DNA of 64,000 nucleotides, taken from NCBI GenBank assembly GCA_015272515.1, contig JACYLN010000115.1:124001-188000 (forward strand). Reading direction: 5' to 3'. A program made the position numbers and the translations under genes. The stretch is from Leptolyngbyaceae cyanobacterium C42_A2020_001 (GTDB taxonomy: Bacteria; Cyanobacteriota; Cyanobacteriia; Leptolyngbyales; Leptolyngbyaceae). Positions 15,477 to 22,331 of the stretch are shown here, piece after piece. Each line of letters starts with the position of its first letter. The first letter of the stretch is position 1. The notes beneath the pieces were generated by a model. It saw only the letters and a program-made list of their open reading frames with translations. It had not been told where the DNA came from and made no database searches.

Positions 15477-16739
15477 TTAACCAAAAATGCTGCCAAAAAA
15501 GTCAACGGCTTCTTTCAGTGCGGCAATGAAGACATCAATATCTTCTCGCGTGTTGTAAAAGTAAAGGCTGGCACGAGCCGTTGACTGAGCACCGAGATGA
15601 CGATGCAATGGCTGAGTGCAGTGATGCCCAGCGCGGATTGCCACGCCCGCTTGATCCAAGATGGTAGAAAGGTCGTGGGGATGCACATCGCCCGCAGTAA
15701 AGGCTGCCAGAGCTGCTCGTCCACCACCATTCGCATTAGGTTTCGGTCCATAGGTGCGGATCGTTGGCACTTGCTCCAGTTGCTTAAACAGGTAGGCAGT
15801 CAGTTCTTCTTCGTAGGTGTGAATCCTATCCATGCCGATCGCGGTCAGGTAATCAACGGCTGCACCCAGGGCGATCGCTTCAGCAATAGCAGGAGTTCCC
15901 GCTTCAAACTTGTGGGGTAAATCTGCATAAGTTGCGCGATCGAGGAACACATCCGCAATCATTTCACCCCCGCCCAAAAAGGGAGGCATGGAGCGCAGCA
16001 ACTCCAGTTTGCCGTACAAAAACCCAATGCCCGTCGGCGCACACATTTTATGACCGGAAGCCACCAGCCAATCACAATCAATCTGCTGCACATTCAGGGG
16101 CATGTGAGGCGCGCTCTGGCAAGCGTCTATCAACACTTTGGCTCCATAACGATGCGCTTCCGCACAAATCTCTTGCACTGGGTTGATGCAGCCCAGCGTA
16201 TTTGATACGTGAACCACGGAAACGAGTTTTGTTTTGTCAGATAACAAGGATTTGAAGTGGTCAAAGTCAAACTCTTCCGTCTCCGTCAATTCCACAAACT
16301 TGAGAATGGCTCCGGTTCGCTGCGCCACAAACTGCCAGGGAATCAAATTGCTGTGATGCTCCATCACAGTCAGGATAATTTCGTCGCCTGGCTGAAGCGT
16401 GCTCATCGCCCAGGCGTAAGCCACCAAATTAATCGCTTCACTGGCATTGCGAGTAAACACAATCTCTTGCCGAGATGGCGCGTTGACGAAAGCTGCAACC
16501 TTATCGCGTGCTCCTTCGTACCCATCCGTTGCCCGACTGCTTAAGGTATGCACGCCCCGATGCACGTTGGCATTGTCGTTCTCGTAATAATGCTTCAGCG
16601 CTTCCAAAACTGCGATCGGCTTCTGAGACGTGGCAGCATTATCCAAATAGACCAACGGCTTCCCATGAATTTCTTGATGCAGGATCGGGAAGTCGGCACG
16701 AACTTTGAAAGCCAGGGGTTTTTCGGTTGCAATAGTCAT
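15477..16739 (-). CDS. sufS: Cysteine desulfurase SufS
   Basis: The PLP enzyme that takes sulfur from cysteine and delivers it as persulfide to the SUF Fe-S cluster scaffold. Seen: PLP lysine K231 in [12 protein letters not shown], active-site cysteine C374 in RAGHHCTQP, and His in VMEHHSN. The length of 420 residues is normal. It is the last gene of ftrC-sufB-nuclease-like-sufC-sufD-sufS, 58 bases after sufD. No sufE gene is in the window. Confidence 0.97.
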
Positions 16740-16797: not shown

Positions 16798-18168
16798 TTA
16801 AGCGATAGAACCATGTTTACGGTGCGGAACACGCACATTAGCGGCAAGGGTGTCTCGCAAAGAAACAATGGGAATCTGGCTAATGACATCGTAGGCAAAG
16901 GCATAGACTAGAAGCTTCCGAGCACTATTTTCGTCAATGCCGCGACTTTGCAGATAAAACACTTCATCGCTTTCTAACTGGCTTACCGTTGCACCGTGAG
17001 CACATTTCACATTATCAGCGGTGATTTCGAGTTGAGGTTTCGTATCTACCCGCGCTTTCGGAGAGACTAACAGGTTTTTACTCAATTGCCGCGCATCGGT
17101 TAACTGCGCCGCTTTCGGTACAAAGATTTTGCCATTGAAAATCGCGTGTGCCCGGTCATCCACAATACATTTGTGAACCTGATTGCTGGTGCCATAGGGC
17201 TGAGTGTAGGAGATCAGACTGTGCGTATCCGCCACCTGTTGATCGGCAATCATCGTCAACCCATTCAAAACGGTATGGGTTTGTTCGCCCGTTTGGTAAA
17301 CCTCCAGGTTATGCCGAGAAAGTGCCGCCCCTAAGCTAATAGCGTTGCAGGTGTAGTGAGAGTCGCGAGCTTGAGATACTGCTGTTTTACCAATGTGAAA
17401 GGCAGTTTGACTATCCCTCTGGATTCTAGTGTGGTTCACTTGAGCGTTCGCTTCCACCCAGACTTCCGTCACAGCGTTGGTAAAATACACACTTGCATCT
17501 AGCGCAATGTAATCTTCAACTAAGGTTAGGCTGCTGCTAGATTCAACGATAACTAAACAACGGGGATGGGTGATGGCAGATGCTTGCCCGGTAGTGGAGA
17601 GAAATAACAGGTGAATTGGAGCCTCTACCACGTGATTTGAGGGAATGTAGAGCACCGCCGCATCGGTCATGCTTGCGGTATTCAATGTGGTGAAGGTTTC
17701 TTCAGCTCCGGGTTGTTTACCTAGCTGGTTGAGGAGGCGATCGCGTAAGGCTGCTTCGCGGTATGCTGCCGTCAAATTCCCAATAAACGCATTCGCAGGC
17801 AGATCTGCCGCTACTGACAACTCAGGCAGGAAAATGCCATCAACAAATACTAAGCGGTTAGCAGCTTCGGGCAGAAGGTATGGCGCGATCGCTGCTTGGC
17901 TGATGGTTGATGGCTCACCACTGACTGCTTTAAATTCAGTTGCCAACAACGACGATAAATCAGTGAATCGCCATTCTTCATCGCGAGTAGAAGGAAGGGC
18001 TAACTCTTGCACTCTTGCGGTGGCGCGATCGCGTACTTCCTGAAGCCATCTCAGGTCATCAGTGAGGGGCGATCGCAGAGACAGGAGATTGGTTAAGTAA
18101 GCGGCGCGATTAATTGTGGTCGCAACTCCTAAATTCCCCACTTCAGAAACAGTAGACACATCAATCAT
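16798..18168 (-). CDS. sufD: Fe-S cluster assembly protein SufD
   Basis: A 456-residue beta-helix scaffold partner in the SufBC2D complex. It shares the SufB/SufD core, with conserved [36 protein letters not shown] and the C-terminal [20 protein letters not shown] segment, including the Cys and nearby His found in SufD. The ATG overlaps the sufC stop codon as ATGA, so translation is coupled. Cytosolic. Confidence 0.97.
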
Positions 18169-18953
18169 CGTGCGATCGCCTCCGCTTCTTCTTCCCGAAT
18201 CCAGTCATAGCCACGCGCCTCCAGTTCCAGCGCCAGATCTTTGCCGCCTGTGGTCACAATCCGCCCACTTTCCATGACGTGGACATAATCTGGAACGATG
18301 TAATTGAGAAGTCGCTGGTAATGGGTAATCAGCACGACCGCATTCTCTGAAGTTCTTAGTTCATTCACACCACCAGCAACAACCTTCAGCGCATCAATAT
18401 CCAGCCCTGAATCTGTTTCGTCTAAAATAGCGAGCTTCGGTTCCAACAACGCCATTTGCAGAATCTCGTTGCGTTTTTTCTCCCCACCAGAGAATCCTTC
18501 ATTGACGCTGCGGTTGAGAAAGGCTGGATTCATCTTGACCACATTTAGCTTGCTCTGCAACAGTTCATCAAAGTCAAAAGCATCCAGTTCCTCTAACCCT
18601 TCGTGTTTACGTTTAGAGTTGTAGGCAATTCGCAAAAAATCGGTGTTGCTCACACCCGGAATTTCAATCGGGTATTGGAACGCCAGAAAAACGCCTGAGC
18701 GCGCCCGATCTTCAGCCTCTATTTCTAACAAGTTTTGCCCCAGATAGGTAATTTCCCCACCCGTGACGGTGTAATCGGGGTGCCCGGCCAAAATTTTGGA
18801 AAAGGTACTTTTTCCTGAACCATTCGGTCCCATAATGGCGTGAATTTCACCCGCTTTCACTTCCAGATTCAATCCTTTAAGGATCTGGGTTCCATCCACA
18901 TCAGCGGTCAAATCCCGCACTGATAAAATTACTTCACTGCCTTCACAAATCAC
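18165..18953 (-). CDS. sufC: Fe-S cluster assembly ATPase SufC
   Basis: The ABC-type ATPase subunit of SufBC2D. Walker A is GPNGSGKST (42-50), the signature is FSGGEKK (154-160), and Walker B is LAILDE (174-179). ATP-driven dimerisation of SufC opens SufB/SufD for cluster assembly. The start is a GTG preceded by AGAGGTG. It is separated from sufB by a nuclease-like gene and overlaps sufD by four bases. Confidence 0.97.
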
Positions 18954-19004
18954 AGATTACACCTCTAGTTACAACGACTTTAGAAAAATGATTAACATAA
19001 TCAA

Positions 19005-19628
19005 TTAAAACTGTGCTAGACGTTTCAAAATTCGCAGGACTTCATATAATTCATTTTCACGTCGATTACGCAGTTTAAATTCATCTGATGTAGCATATTG
19101 AGGGGTTGGAAATCGAACCAGCTTTGTAAACAAAAAATTTCCACCAGCGATGACCAAACCAAATACTGGCTTCTCAGCGTTGGGGCTACTCATCATATAG
19201 GCAAGAAGTTGAGACAAACCTGCTTCTACAGAAAATTCAGCCTGCTTTGACTCAATGACAACAACCCAAAGATCGTTTTTGAGCAAGACACAATCAAGTT
19301 GACCACGGATTATTACGCCATCATCATCTCTAGAAATTTCAACTGACTTCTCAGCTTGAATATGAAACGGTGGCAAAAAGAAACCACCTAAAAATAGTAG
19401 GGGGGATAACAGAGTTACTTGAACGACTTTCTCAAGCAAAGGGGGATACTTTAAGTGATTAAAAAATGCAGCTTTTGCTTGATCTAAAAACCACTTATCT
19501 GTTTCTGATAAATCAGGAAGCTGCGATCGCCATTCCCAGAAAAAGTCGTCATCTTGAACTTCTTGCAGACCAAATTGATCAATCAAGTCGCGAAGGGTTA
19601 CGTTTCTAGCCTGTAGAGTTTGTGCCAT
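19005..19628 (-). CDS. PD-(D/E)xK nuclease-like protein inside the suf operon
   Basis: A 207-residue protein with a probable PD-(D/E)xK core: D112 in RGQLDCVLL, then E126-S-K128 in VVVIESKQ, and Q140 in the following helix (LSQLLAYM). Cyanobacterial relatives are usually labelled 'restriction endonuclease subunit R'. No methylase or specificity subunit is nearby. Its ATG directly follows the sufB stop (TAAATG), so it is probably translated from the suf mRNA; sufC begins 51 bases after its stop. Whether it cuts nucleic acid or has any Fe-S role is unknown. It contains HIP1-type sequence like its neighbours, so it is not obviously recent. Confidence 0.7.
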   Translation of the reverse strand: MAQTLQARNVTLRDLIDQFGLQEVQDDDFFWEWRSQLPDLSETDKWFLDQAKAAFFNHLKYPPLLEKVVQVTLLSPLLFLGGFFLPPFHIQAEKSVEISRDDDGVIIRGQLDCVLLKNDLWVVVIESKQAEFSVEAGLSQLLAYMMSSPNAEKPVFGLVIAGGNFLFTKLVRFPTPQYATSDEFKLRNRRENELYEVLRILKRLAQF

Positions 19629-21065
19629 TTACCCTACACTACCTTCGAGTTTGAGGCTGAGGAGGCGATCGGCTTCTACGGCAAACTCCATCGGCAACTG
19701 GTTAAACACATCCTTACAGAAACCGCTAATCATCATAGAAACCGCATCCTCTGCGGAGATGCCCCGTTGCTGGAAGTAGAACAACTGGTCTTCACCAATT
19801 TTGGAGGTCGATGCTTCGTGTTCCACTCTGCCGGAGTTATTTTGCACCTGGATGTAGGGGAAGGTGTTTGCCTGAGCATTATCGCCAATCAGCATCGAGT
19901 CGCACTGGGAATAGTTGCGGGCACCTATTGCTTTCGGACCAACTTTGACCAAACCGCGATAGCTATTTTTAGACTGACCAGCAGAAATACCTTTCGAGAT
20001 GATGGTGCTGCGAGTATTCTTACCGATGTGTACCATCTTGGTTCCCGTATCGGCTTGCTGATGGTGATTGGTCAGCGCTACTGAGTAGAACTCACCGACG
20101 GAGTTATCGCCCACCAGCACACAACTGGGATACTTCCAGGTAATGGCAGAACCCGTTTCTACCTGAGTCCAGGAGATTTTGGAGTTTTTGCCCTGGCATA
20201 AGCCCCGCTTGGTGACGAAGTTGTAAATGCCACCCTTGCCGTTTTTGTCTCCGGCGTACCAGTTTTGTACAGTGGAGTATTTAATTTCAGCATCATCCAA
20301 TGCCACCAGTTCGACCACTGCCGCGTGAAGTTGGTTGGTGTCATACATGGGTGCGGTGCAGCCTTCCAGATAGCTGACATGGCTGCCTTCTTCTGCCACA
20401 ATCAGCGTTCGTTCAAACTGTCCAGAGTCACCGTTGTTGATGCGGAAGTAAGTAGACAATTCCATTGGGCAGCGAACCCCTTTCGGGATATACACGAAAG
20501 AGCCATCGCTGAAGACGGCTGAGTTCAATGCGGCGAAGTAGTTATCCGCAATGGGAACCACACTTCCCAAGTACTTCTTAACTAGTTCAGGATACTCTTT
20601 GAGTGCTTCTGAGATGGAGCAAAAGATCACGCCGTCTTTCGCCAATTTCTCTTTAAACGTGGTGGCAACCGAAACGCTATCAAAAATTGCGTCTACTGCC
20701 ACGTTTGCCAATCGTTTTTGTTCCGAGAGCGGAATCCCCAGCTTTTCAAACGTTTCTAGCAACTCTGGATCAACTTCGTTGAGACTCTTTTTCTTCTCGC
20801 TAACTTTAGGAGCGGAATAGTAAATGATGTCTTGATAGTCGATCGCGGGATAGGTCGCATTTTGCCAGGTTGGCTCCGTCATTTTGAGCCACTGACGATA
20901 TGCCTTCAAACGAAATTCCAGCATGAACTCAGGTTCGCCTTTCTTTTCAGAAATCAGACGAACAATGTCTTCATTCAGTCCACGGGGAATCGTATCGGAT
21001 TCAATATTGGTAATGAAACCGTACTTGTAGGGTTGGTTGACTAGATTTTGAACGGATGCGCTCAT
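19629..21065 (-). CDS. sufB: Fe-S cluster assembly scaffold SufB
   Basis: The main scaffold of the SUF complex. The 478-residue protein shows the family hallmarks: [20 protein letters not shown], the segment [19 protein letters not shown] near the end, and [20 protein letters not shown]. The start was moved from a TTG to the ATG at 21065, which gives the usual cyanobacterial N-terminus (begins [16 protein letters not shown]). ftrC lies upstream on the same strand (93 bp gap). Confidence 0.97.
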
Positions 21066-21084
21066 GGGTGTTCTTGGGATCGGA

Positions 21085-21157
21085 GGATTTGAGATTGACA
21101 ATTTTGGATTCTGGATTTTGGATGCAATCTAAGATCCAAAATCTCAAATCAAAAAGG
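21085..21157. repeat. ATCCAAAATC-type inverted repeat between ftrC and sufB
   Basis: GATTTGAGATT near the sufB side and AATCTCAAATC near the ftrC side are inverted copies flanking TTTTGGATTCTGGATTTTGG and its partial complement ATCCAAAATC. A compact hairpin could form in the ftrC-sufB transcript and affect the ratio of the two products. Short repeats of this kind are common between cyanobacterial genes. Confidence 0.5.
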
Positions 21158-21158
21158 A

Positions 21159-21521
21159 CTAGTACTGATTGGTCACAGCACGAATCTGCTCAAGTGAAAT
21201 TTCTTGGGCATCGCCTGCAAAGGGGTTGTCGGGAGTTAGAAACAACATACAGTGGCACTCTTTGCGCTCACGCATCGGCACACAGGGACAATTCCAGTAA
21301 GCTGCCTCTGCTTCTGCTGCTTTGTCTTCGTAATGGCGACAGGGACATAGCGGAGACCCAAGCTCATCTTTATGCTTTGCCAGCCCCTCAATTACGACTG
21401 CCGTCACACCTGGGTCAGAGCAAAAATAGGTGCCTGTGTTCTTGGCGTACTTCTCGGAGAAGTGCCGCATAGCTTCAAGGCTTTTTTCGGTAGCTTGAGT
21501 GGGTTGAGTCGGTGTATTCAT
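21159..21521 (-). CDS. ftrC: Ferredoxin-thioredoxin reductase, catalytic subunit
   Basis: The [4Fe-4S] disulfide reductase subunit that passes electrons from ferredoxin to thioredoxin for light-dependent redox control. The cysteine motifs are all present: SPLCPCRHYEDK, WNCPC and KECHC, which provide both the cluster ligands and the redox-active pair. The length of 120 residues is typical. It is the first gene of the transcript that continues into sufB, so its expression is probably under the same SufR-type control as cluster assembly (inference). Cytosolic. Confidence 0.95.
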   Translation of the reverse strand: MNTPTQPTQATEKSLEAMRHFSEKYAKNTGTYFCSDPGVTAVVIEGLAKHKDELGSPLCPCRHYEDKAAEAEAAYWNCPCVPMRERKECHCMLFLTPDNPFAGDAQEISLEQIRAVTNQY

Positions 21522-21618: not shown

Positions 21619-21632
21619 CAACAATGTTGTTG
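21619..21632. promoter_or_regulatory. SufR operator-like site 2
   Basis: CAAC-AATGTT-GTTG, an exact match to the pattern CAAC-N6-GTTG reported for SufR, 52 bases before the sufR ATG. Repression of both the ftrC-suf operon and sufR itself is the likely outcome. Confidence 0.7.
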
Positions 21633-21683: not shown

Positions 21684-22331
21684 ATGACCGCAACTCAGCA
21701 GCCCTCTACAAAGCAAGACATCCTGCAACACCTTTTGAAGCAGGGGCGGGCAACCGCGCAAGATTTGGCTGAGACGCTGCATATTAGCCCTCAGGCAATT
21801 CGTCGTCACCTCAAAGATTTGGAGGAAGAGGGGTTGATTAACCACCATGCAGAACAAACCGGGATGGGGCGACCGAATCATTTGTATACGCTGAGCCAGG
21901 CTGGAAGAAGTCAGTTTCCCGATCGCTACGATGAGTTTGCCGTTTCCCTGCTAGACACTCTGGCAGAAACCATTGGCAAGGAGCAGGTGGGGTCGATTCT
22001 CCGCAAACAGTGGGAACGCAAAGCGCTGGAGTATCGCGATCTGCTGGGTGCAGGTTCCATCAAAGAACGGGTGGATAAGTTGGTGGAACTGCGCCGAGAG
22101 GAAGGCTACATGACAGAGTGTCACCGAGTTGATGAAACTCAGGATGACCGTTTTGTGTTGACCGAATATAACTGTGCCATCTCCCACATTGCCGAAACCT
22201 TTCCTAGCGTTTGCGGGCATGAACTGGAAATGTTTGGAGCCGCCCTGCCCGACTGCACTGTAGAGCGGACTCACTGGCTCGTCAACGGGGAGCATCGCTG
22301 CGGATATTTGATTCAACCTAAGCACGCCTGA
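21684..22331 (+). CDS. sufR: SufR, Fe-S cluster-sensing repressor of the suf operon
   Basis: A 215-residue DeoR/ArsR-like winged-helix regulator that binds a [4Fe-4S] cluster and represses sufBCDS when the cluster is present. The N-terminal HTH (TAQDLAETLHISPQAIRRHL) and the C-terminal cysteines in EYNCAISHI, PSVCGHELEM, LPDCTVERTH and HRCGYLIQP are intact. The start was moved from an upstream ATG at 21603 to 21684, which gives the family N-terminus MTATQQPSTKQDIL; the longer form would cover the operator-like site at 21619. It is divergent from ftrC-suf. Confidence 0.95.
   Translation: MTATQQPSTKQDILQHLLKQGRATAQDLAETLHISPQAIRRHLKDLEEEGLINHHAEQTGMGRPNHLYTLSQAGRSQFPDRYDEFAVSLLDTLAETIGKEQVGSILRKQWERKALEYRDLLGAGSIKERVDKLVELRREEGYMTECHRVDETQDDRFVLTEYNCAISHIAETFPSVCGHELEMFGAALPDCTVERTHWLVNGEHRCGYLIQPKHA

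What the first reader, a model, noticed from the sequence alone, without database searches (positions are those of the whole stretch)
19005..19628. A nuclease-fold gene abutting sufB inside the suf operon
The gene for a PD-(D/E)xK-like protein (D112, E126, K128, Q140) begins exactly at the sufB stop codon and precedes sufC on the same strand. The usual order in cyanobacteria is sufB-sufC-sufD-sufS without it. It would be made with the Fe-S machinery and under SufR control, which is unexpected for a restriction-like protein; it may be a passenger that uses the operon, or have a role tied to iron-sulfur or oxidative stress.
Basis: partly seen in the sequence, partly recalled or inferred. Interest (0 to 1): 0.6.

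Follow-up and report, generated by a model that had tools for sequence, protein, structure and literature searches.

The report
Swappable nuclease gene inside suf operon
Many cyanobacteria carry a small DNA-cutting-type enzyme gene wedged into the operon that builds iron-sulfur clusters; it seems not to be part of that machinery but a gene that is repeatedly swapped between lineages and lost, at this one spot, and why that spot is chosen can be tested.

Summary
A 207-aa gene (19005-19628, minus strand) starts at the base after the sufB stop and is followed by sufC. It has a PD-(D/E)xK core: D112/E126/K128/Q140 kept in 26 of 28 slot copies, same D-E-K spacing as EcoR124I HsdR, fold supported by an AlphaFold2 model. 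A SufR-type box lies in front of the operon; no terminator was found between the genes.

It is not a one-off insertion. Of 84 genomes whose sufB-sufC slot I could see, 27 hold this gene: 17 intact, 2 with a ruined active site, 8 remnants, all on the suf strand. Slot copies form one clade (99/91), apart from copies elsewhere, including five in the same genome. Yet their tree is not the tree of the Suf proteins (AU p 2e-51), and near-identical operons carry different alleles (SufB 99-100%, nuclease 66-68%). The slot can also hold a retropepsin-like gene and a 342-aa family found nowhere else.

Best reading: a passenger nuclease docked in the suf operon, exchanged allele by allele between lineages and often decaying; probably a genetic-conflict gene (restriction-like, or spreading by homing), not Fe-S machinery. 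Cleavage, target and co-transcription are untested.

The parts
19005..19628 (-). Stand-alone PD-(D/E)xK (HsdR-N-like) nuclease gene, 207 aa ('NUC'); catalytic D112, E126, K128, Q140 and Y144 (QxxxY)
19626..19631 (-). sufB stop codon (TAA) directly followed by the NUC start codon (ATG)
18954..19004 (-). 51-bp NUC-sufC spacer; weak AT hairpin plus T-run, folding no better than shuffled sequence; no terminator called
19629..21101 (-). sufB (ORF from TTG; the family match begins at residue 13, so the true start is probably later)
18165..18953 (-). sufC
16798..18168 (-). sufD
15477..16739 (-). sufS
21159..21521 (-). first gene of the operon in this genome, named here ferredoxin-thioredoxin reductase catalytic chain (name by recall)
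   Evidence: same place in most relatives
21684..22331 (+). sufR, divergent (ORF listed from 21603; likely ATG at 21684)
21619..21632 (.). SufR-type palindrome CAAC-N6-GTTG between sufR and the operon (motif identity recalled; its conservation tested)

Best explanation
The gene is a passenger: a single-domain, HsdR-N-like PD-(D/E)xK nuclease docked between sufB and sufC and expressed with the suf genes, but not part of Fe-S assembly. Shown by sequence: an intact active site under purifying selection, one origin of all slot copies, a history that departs from that of the neighbouring Suf proteins, allele replacement confined to the gene, and frequent decay. Inferred: it is read from the SufR-controlled transcript and translated at the sufB stop; it cuts DNA; it belongs to the class of genetic-conflict genes (a restriction-like nuclease without its motor, or a nuclease that promotes its own spread), which explains turnover at a fixed place. 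An essential operon is a good dock: always expressed, hard to delete, and with conserved flanks through which alleles can be exchanged by homologous recombination.
For: One clade: 28 of 28 slot copies on one side of one branch among 115 rows (FastTree, support 88, shuffled mean 25 changes); IQ-TREE with 26 slot and 36 other copies, 99/91. Fixed place and strand: 27 of 27 slot hits on the suf strand. Lateral exchange: Suf topology rejected for NUC (22 taxa, delta lnL 297, AU p 1.7e-51); 5 of 8 well-supported NUC splits conflict with well-supported Suf splits. Allele replacement: L173 against L169/L170 has NUC at 66% DNA identity, sufB 89-91%, sufC 90-92%, gene A 81-85%, with the drop at the gene's edges, whereas L169-L170 NUC is 85%; the L173 copy is not fast-evolving (identity to outgroup copies 0.55-0.61, as L169/L170). 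L162-L167 likewise: NUC 70%, A 88%, sufB 88%. Decay: 2 ruined active sites and 8 remnants in 84 visible slots, one in the same genus (first 94 codons only). Purifying selection: dN/dS 0.06-0.09 in the 4 pairs where dS could be computed, of 11. G+C 38-43% against 47-52% for neighbouring suf genes, in the window and 5 relatives. Some relatives elsewhere sit beside Hma or DUF1156-methylase defence genes (4 loci) and on cyanobacterial plasmids (28 records).
Against: No experiment shows cleavage, a target or co-transcription. NUC identity still correlates with SufB/SufC identity (r 0.66, 325 pairs), so much of its descent is vertical. Old tandem copies with differential loss (G010 has two copies at 54%) could explain part of the tree conflict without transfer. 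No methylase or motor partner lies in the slot. Low dN/dS would also fit an ordinary cellular function.
Confidence: 0.62

Rival explanations
1. Homing-type selfish nuclease (a specific form of the passenger reading): the protein cuts the sufB-sufC junction (or flanking suf sequence) of genomes that lack it and is copied in by repair, then decays when the site is saturated.
For: Fixed slot, single clade, lateral history, many remnants beside intact copies; no slot-clade copy found elsewhere among 87 non-slot rows; a second slot-only family with a PD...ETK motif (gene B). Free-standing homing genes are known, and in phages they cluster near essential genes (PMC3984707, passages; PMC10448857, abstract).
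Against: Exchange between two occupied slots (L169/L170/L173) is not classical homing; HsdR-N-like enzymes are not known as site-specific homing enzymes (recall); the parent family is scattered at many loci; no cut site could be tested; no clear co-conversion tract is recognisable at these divergences.
Confidence: 0.22
2. Stand-alone restriction-like defence nuclease that uses the suf operon for steady expression (the other specific form of the passenger reading).
For: Structure matches to HsdR, DrdV, McrC and SduA; four relatives of 87 beside Hma/DUF1156 methylase genes; plasmid carriage; allele turnover.
Against: No motor, specificity or methylase partner in the slot; no strong PADLOC model (best E 9e-4).
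Confidence: 0.38
3. A working part of the Fe-S or oxidative-stress response (for example DNA clean-up when SufR is relieved).
For: Same operon, SufR-type box conserved, purifying selection.
Against: No trace in 57 of 84 visible slots; lost within a genus; history differs from Suf proteins.
Confidence: 0.07
4. Chance insertion of a member of a proliferating family, no meaning in the place.
For: Family is multi-copy: 6 places in this genome, 177 in 33 of 42 genomes of the family.
Against: Slot copies are one clade and the place is kept in several taxonomic families; gene B occurs only there (7 of 7 genomes).
Confidence: 0.08

Closest known systems
Type I restriction HsdR N-terminal nuclease domain (Pfam HSDR_N, PF04313; EcoR124I HsdR)
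   Same: PD-(D/E)xK fold; identical spacing D-14-E-2-K (D112/E126/K128 against D151/E165/K167 of EcoR124I, PMC2602864 passages) and a QxxxY motif; structure match Z 6.3
   Different: 207 aa, no helicase motor, no HsdM/HsdS beside it; Pfam score 21.7, under the 25.1 cut-off
Cyanobacterial family annotated 'type I restriction endonuclease subunit R / HsdR N-terminal domain-containing protein' (plasmid hits H2, H8, H14)
   Same: Same length and near full-length alignment, 42-53% identity
   Different: Those copies lie at varied loci; the suf copies are a separate clade in one fixed slot
Free-standing homing endonuclease genes
   Same: Small nuclease gene between essential genes, lateral spread at a fixed site, gain and decay
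   Different: Different nuclease family as far as I know; no target site shown; replacement of occupied alleles
Mammalian mitoribosomal proteins mL37 / mL65 (chain names by recall)
   Same: Best structural match over the whole chain (Z 13.6, rmsd 3.5, 185 residues); described as repurposed endonucleases (PMC8998825 passages)
   Different: 8-13% identity; structural proteins of the mitoribosome

Membership tests
PD-(D/E)xK nuclease superfamily | Catalytic D...(D/E)xK conserved | tested here: met
   52 of 53 (D112) and 53 of 53 (E126, K128, Q140, Y144) in A2; all four of D112, E126, K128 and Q140 in 26 of 28 slot copies
PD-(D/E)xK nuclease superfamily | Core fold | tested here: met
   AF2 model pLDDT 82.9, pTM 0.83; D112 on one strand, E-x-K at the end of the next, Q140 on the following helix; matches to DrdV Z 8.4, HsdR 6.3, McrC 5.2
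PD-(D/E)xK nuclease superfamily | Nuclease activity | not testable with these tools
   needs purified protein
Pfam HSDR_N (PF04313) | Score above the gathering cut-off | tested here: not met
   21.7 bits against 25.1; 7 of 16 slot copies match at E <= 0.01, best 1.5e-4
Type I restriction R subunit | Helicase motor fused to the nuclease, HsdM and HsdS partners | tested here: not met
   207 aa; neighbours are suf genes
Free-standing homing endonuclease | Lateral spread at a fixed site | tested here: met
Free-standing homing endonuclease | Cuts the unoccupied allele at the insertion site | not testable with these tools
   needs a cleavage assay
SUF operon component | Conserved with the suf genes and co-inherited | tested here: not met
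   no trace in 57 of 84 visible slots; Suf topology rejected
SufR regulon | SufR-type operator in front of the transcription unit | tested here: met
   box at 21619-21632; exact box in 80 of 86 relatives, 0.2 expected; binding and co-transcription not tested

The most novel reading that the evidence does not exclude
The sufB-sufC junction is a dedicated docking site for a self-spreading nuclease cassette of cyanobacterial chromosomes: up to three slot genes (retropepsin-like A, slot-exclusive PD...ETK protein B, HsdR-N-like nuclease C) that home into an essential operon, replace one another allele by allele and then decay. This would be a chromosomal counterpart of phage intronless homing, with a nuclease class not known for it.
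Probability: 0.18. Interest if true: 0.82.

Novelty: new variant of a known kind. Interest (0 to 1): 0.57.

Why it matters
Essential operons are thought of as closed. Here one of the most constrained, the Fe-S assembly operon of oxygenic phototrophs, has carried an exchangeable nuclease cassette at one junction across several cyanobacterial families. If the nuclease drives its own exchange, this is a selfish drive element in a chromosomal essential operon; if it is a defence gene, it shows conflict genes put under iron/redox control. Either way the many intact, dead and empty slots, including three operons with near-identical SufB and different alleles, give ready material for testing.

Tried and rejected
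Chance scatter: rejected by the single clade of slot copies. Known family names: no NCBIfam hit, PADLOC only weak, PHROGs none below E 0.1, PDB sequence search only a chance hit. Phage origin: no match in 50,697 phage records and none in viral contigs. Gene B as a nuclease: the fold prediction failed (pLDDT 43.9 with 2 sequences), so only the motif IPDG...IETK speaks for it; not claimed. B was absent from all of 386 genomes of an even draw of the phylum, but that draw held few close relatives. A wider draw for the nuclease: 26 of 386 genomes have a match at E <= 1e-60; of the 29 loci then fetched besides the window's own (44 matches listed), 2 lie in the suf slot. So the slot copy is a minority trait of the phylum. 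My first NUC-against-Suf correlation (r 0.34) was spoiled: in short contigs (L173, L218) the sufD query hit sufB; the corrected figure, without the two dead copies, is 0.66. The 22-taxon test left out those two contigs, the two dead copies, L161 and one of the G010 tandem copies. The map of presence on the Suf tree (patchy, 13 changes) counted the 4 remnants found later by HMM (G024, G009, G078, G025) as absent. dN/dS: 11 pairs tried, 7 saturated and not used; a G006/G007 fragment comparison in the same call was misframed and is discarded. Co-conversion in flanks: no clear gradient. Terminators: 7 terminator-like sites against 3.6 expected, none in the two junctions, one inside the gene. The Foldseek search itself gave only the mitoribosomal proteins below E 0.001. 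Literature: five searches around a nuclease or insert in the cyanobacterial suf operon, the nuclease family or gene A listed no paper on it that I recognised; only open-access papers are held.

Full report
Observation. On the minus strand the window holds ftrC (name recalled), sufB, a 207-aa gene, sufC, sufD and sufS, with sufR divergent. The 207-aa gene begins at the base after the sufB TAA and ends 51 bp before sufC. Neither junction holds a terminator-like site, and the weak hairpin after the gene folds no better than shuffled sequence. A CAAC-N6-GTTG box (a SufR site by recall) lies between sufR and the operon at 21619-21632; an exact box lies in the same interval in 80 of 86 relatives, 0.2 being expected. 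Control by SufR and a common transcript are therefore likely but not shown.

What the protein is. Pfam HSDR_N is hit below its cut-off (21.7 against 25.1 bits). In 53 aligned family members E126, K128, Q140 and Y144 are invariant and D112 is kept in 52. The spacing D-14-E-2-K equals D151/E165/K167 of EcoR124I HsdR (PMC2602864, passages). The AlphaFold2 model is good (pLDDT 82.9, pTM 0.83). The second-look structural alignment ranks mitoribosomal proteins first (chains that I take to be mL37 and mL65; Z 13.6 over 185 residues), then DrdV (8.4), EcoR124I HsdR (6.3), McrC (5.2) and, lower, SduA (3.8). mL37 and mL65 are themselves described as repurposed endonucleases (PMC8998825, passages), so the list is coherent. 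Z values under 8 alone would prove little; motif and fold together carry the claim.

How it is distributed. This genome has six family members. In the taxonomic family, 33 of 42 genomes have at least one, 177 copies in all. I fetched the suf region of 94 relatives. sufC is seen downstream of sufB in 83; with the window, 84 slots are visible. They hold 17 intact copies, 2 full-length copies without the active site (G005, G049) and 8 remnants (4 by tblastn, 4 by HMM): 27 of 84. One further contig (G036) ends inside a broken copy. In the window's family it is 20 of 38; outside it 7 of 46. All 27 tblastn hits in slots are on the suf strand. The same-genus genome G012 keeps only the first 94 codons. 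In an even draw of 386 genomes of the phylum, 26 have a close match, and 2 of the 29 loci fetched from them besides the window's own are in the slot. Among 80 named loci 18 are in the slot, for example Tildeniella nuda, Phormidesmis priestleyi, Zarconia navalis, Drouetiella hepatica and Petrachloros mirabilis.

One clade. Of 115 family members, the 28 slot copies lie on one side of one branch (500 shuffles, none as low). A careful tree with 26 slot and 36 other copies gives 99/91; there I left out the two dead copies and five long rows, and thinned the others at 75% identity. So the slot was entered once or very few times.

But not a plain vertical history. For 22 taxa the Suf tree is rejected by the nuclease alignment (delta lnL 297, AU p 1.7e-51) and the reverse too. 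Only 4 of 19 splits are shared, and 5 of 8 well-supported nuclease splits conflict with well-supported Suf splits. Three related operons show it directly: L169, L170 and L173 have SufB 99-100% identical. L169-L170 nuclease is 90% identical, but L173 is 66-68% to both. At DNA level the drop is confined to the gene: 66%, against 81-85% in gene A and 89-92% in sufB and sufC. The L173 copy is no faster than the others, so this looks like replacement, not acceleration. G034 and G038, of one genus, have gene A at 92% and the nuclease at 74%. Identity of A and nuclease is unrelated across 66 pairs (r 0.08). On the other side, NUC and SufB/SufC identity correlate at 0.66, so vertical descent is a large part, and tandem copies with differential loss (G010) may explain some of the conflict.

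The slot holds more. Gene A is a retropepsin-like protein of 144 aa (Pfam Asp_protease_2). In the window's family, 10 of the 12 full-length places with 50% or more identity are in this slot (exceptions G014 C1:4014039 and G005 C211:15053; two pieces of a broken slot copy in G027 not counted). Gene B, 342 aa, has no Pfam match and no PADLOC match; it occurs in 7 of 97 relatives and in all 7 it is in this slot, one of them as a fragment. Four genomes carry A-B-C in a row (G015, G034, G041, G001); others carry A-C, C alone, or eroded ends of A, B and C. The window keeps C alone.

Selection and composition. dN/dS is 0.06-0.09 in the four pairs of 11 where dS could be computed. The nuclease has 38-43% G+C, its suf neighbours 47-52%.

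Relatives elsewhere. The 87 non-slot rows lie beside varied genes. Two (L175, L228) lie between HmaB and HmaC defence genes, one (L191) follows HmaB, one (L202) precedes a DUF1156 methylase. 28 plasmid records carry a relative; phage and viral collections none.

Mechanism. Shown: intact and selected active site, fixed place, one origin, exchange at the scale of single genes, decay. Inferred: DNA cutting, co-expression with suf, and a conflict role. Defence (0.38) and homing (0.22) are the two detailed readings; they share the general claim of a passenger nuclease (0.62). A Fe-S role is unlikely (0.07).

Novelty. The protein is of a known kind. An exchangeable nuclease cassette in the sufB-sufC junction did not appear in the papers listed by my searches; the review PMC7058544 (passages) gives sufBCDS without it.

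Noticed in passing
L069:5540-6565 (-), L162:4980-5996, and the suf slots of G005, G006, G001, G041: Gene B: a family of about 340 aa without database match, found in 7 of 97 relatives and only between sufB and sufC.
   Followed up: partly
L081, L087, L090, L091, L097, L102, L134 between sufB and sufC: Gene A: retropepsin-like protein (DSGA motif, lost in G001 and G011) in the same slot; its alleles vary independently of the nuclease.
   Followed up: partly
model m9499fdb2e8fa (window 19005-19628): The whole 207-aa fold matches mitoribosomal mL37/mL65 better than any restriction enzyme (Z 13.6), hinting at the bacterial kin of these repurposed endonucleases.
   Followed up: no
L117, L120, L122: mscL lies between sufB and sufC in genomes G082, G069 and G045: the junction accepts other genes too.
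   Followed up: no
L227, L229, L231, L238: Close relatives of the nuclease (50-52% identity) in Thiomargarita and Parabeggiatoa, giant sulfur bacteria: transfer between phyla, or contamination in bins.
   Followed up: no
L175, L228, L191, L202: Family members inside or beside Hma / DUF1156 methylase defence loci.
   Followed up: partly
L106 (G057): A GNAT acetyltransferase gene sits between gene A and the nuclease in the suf slot.
   Followed up: no
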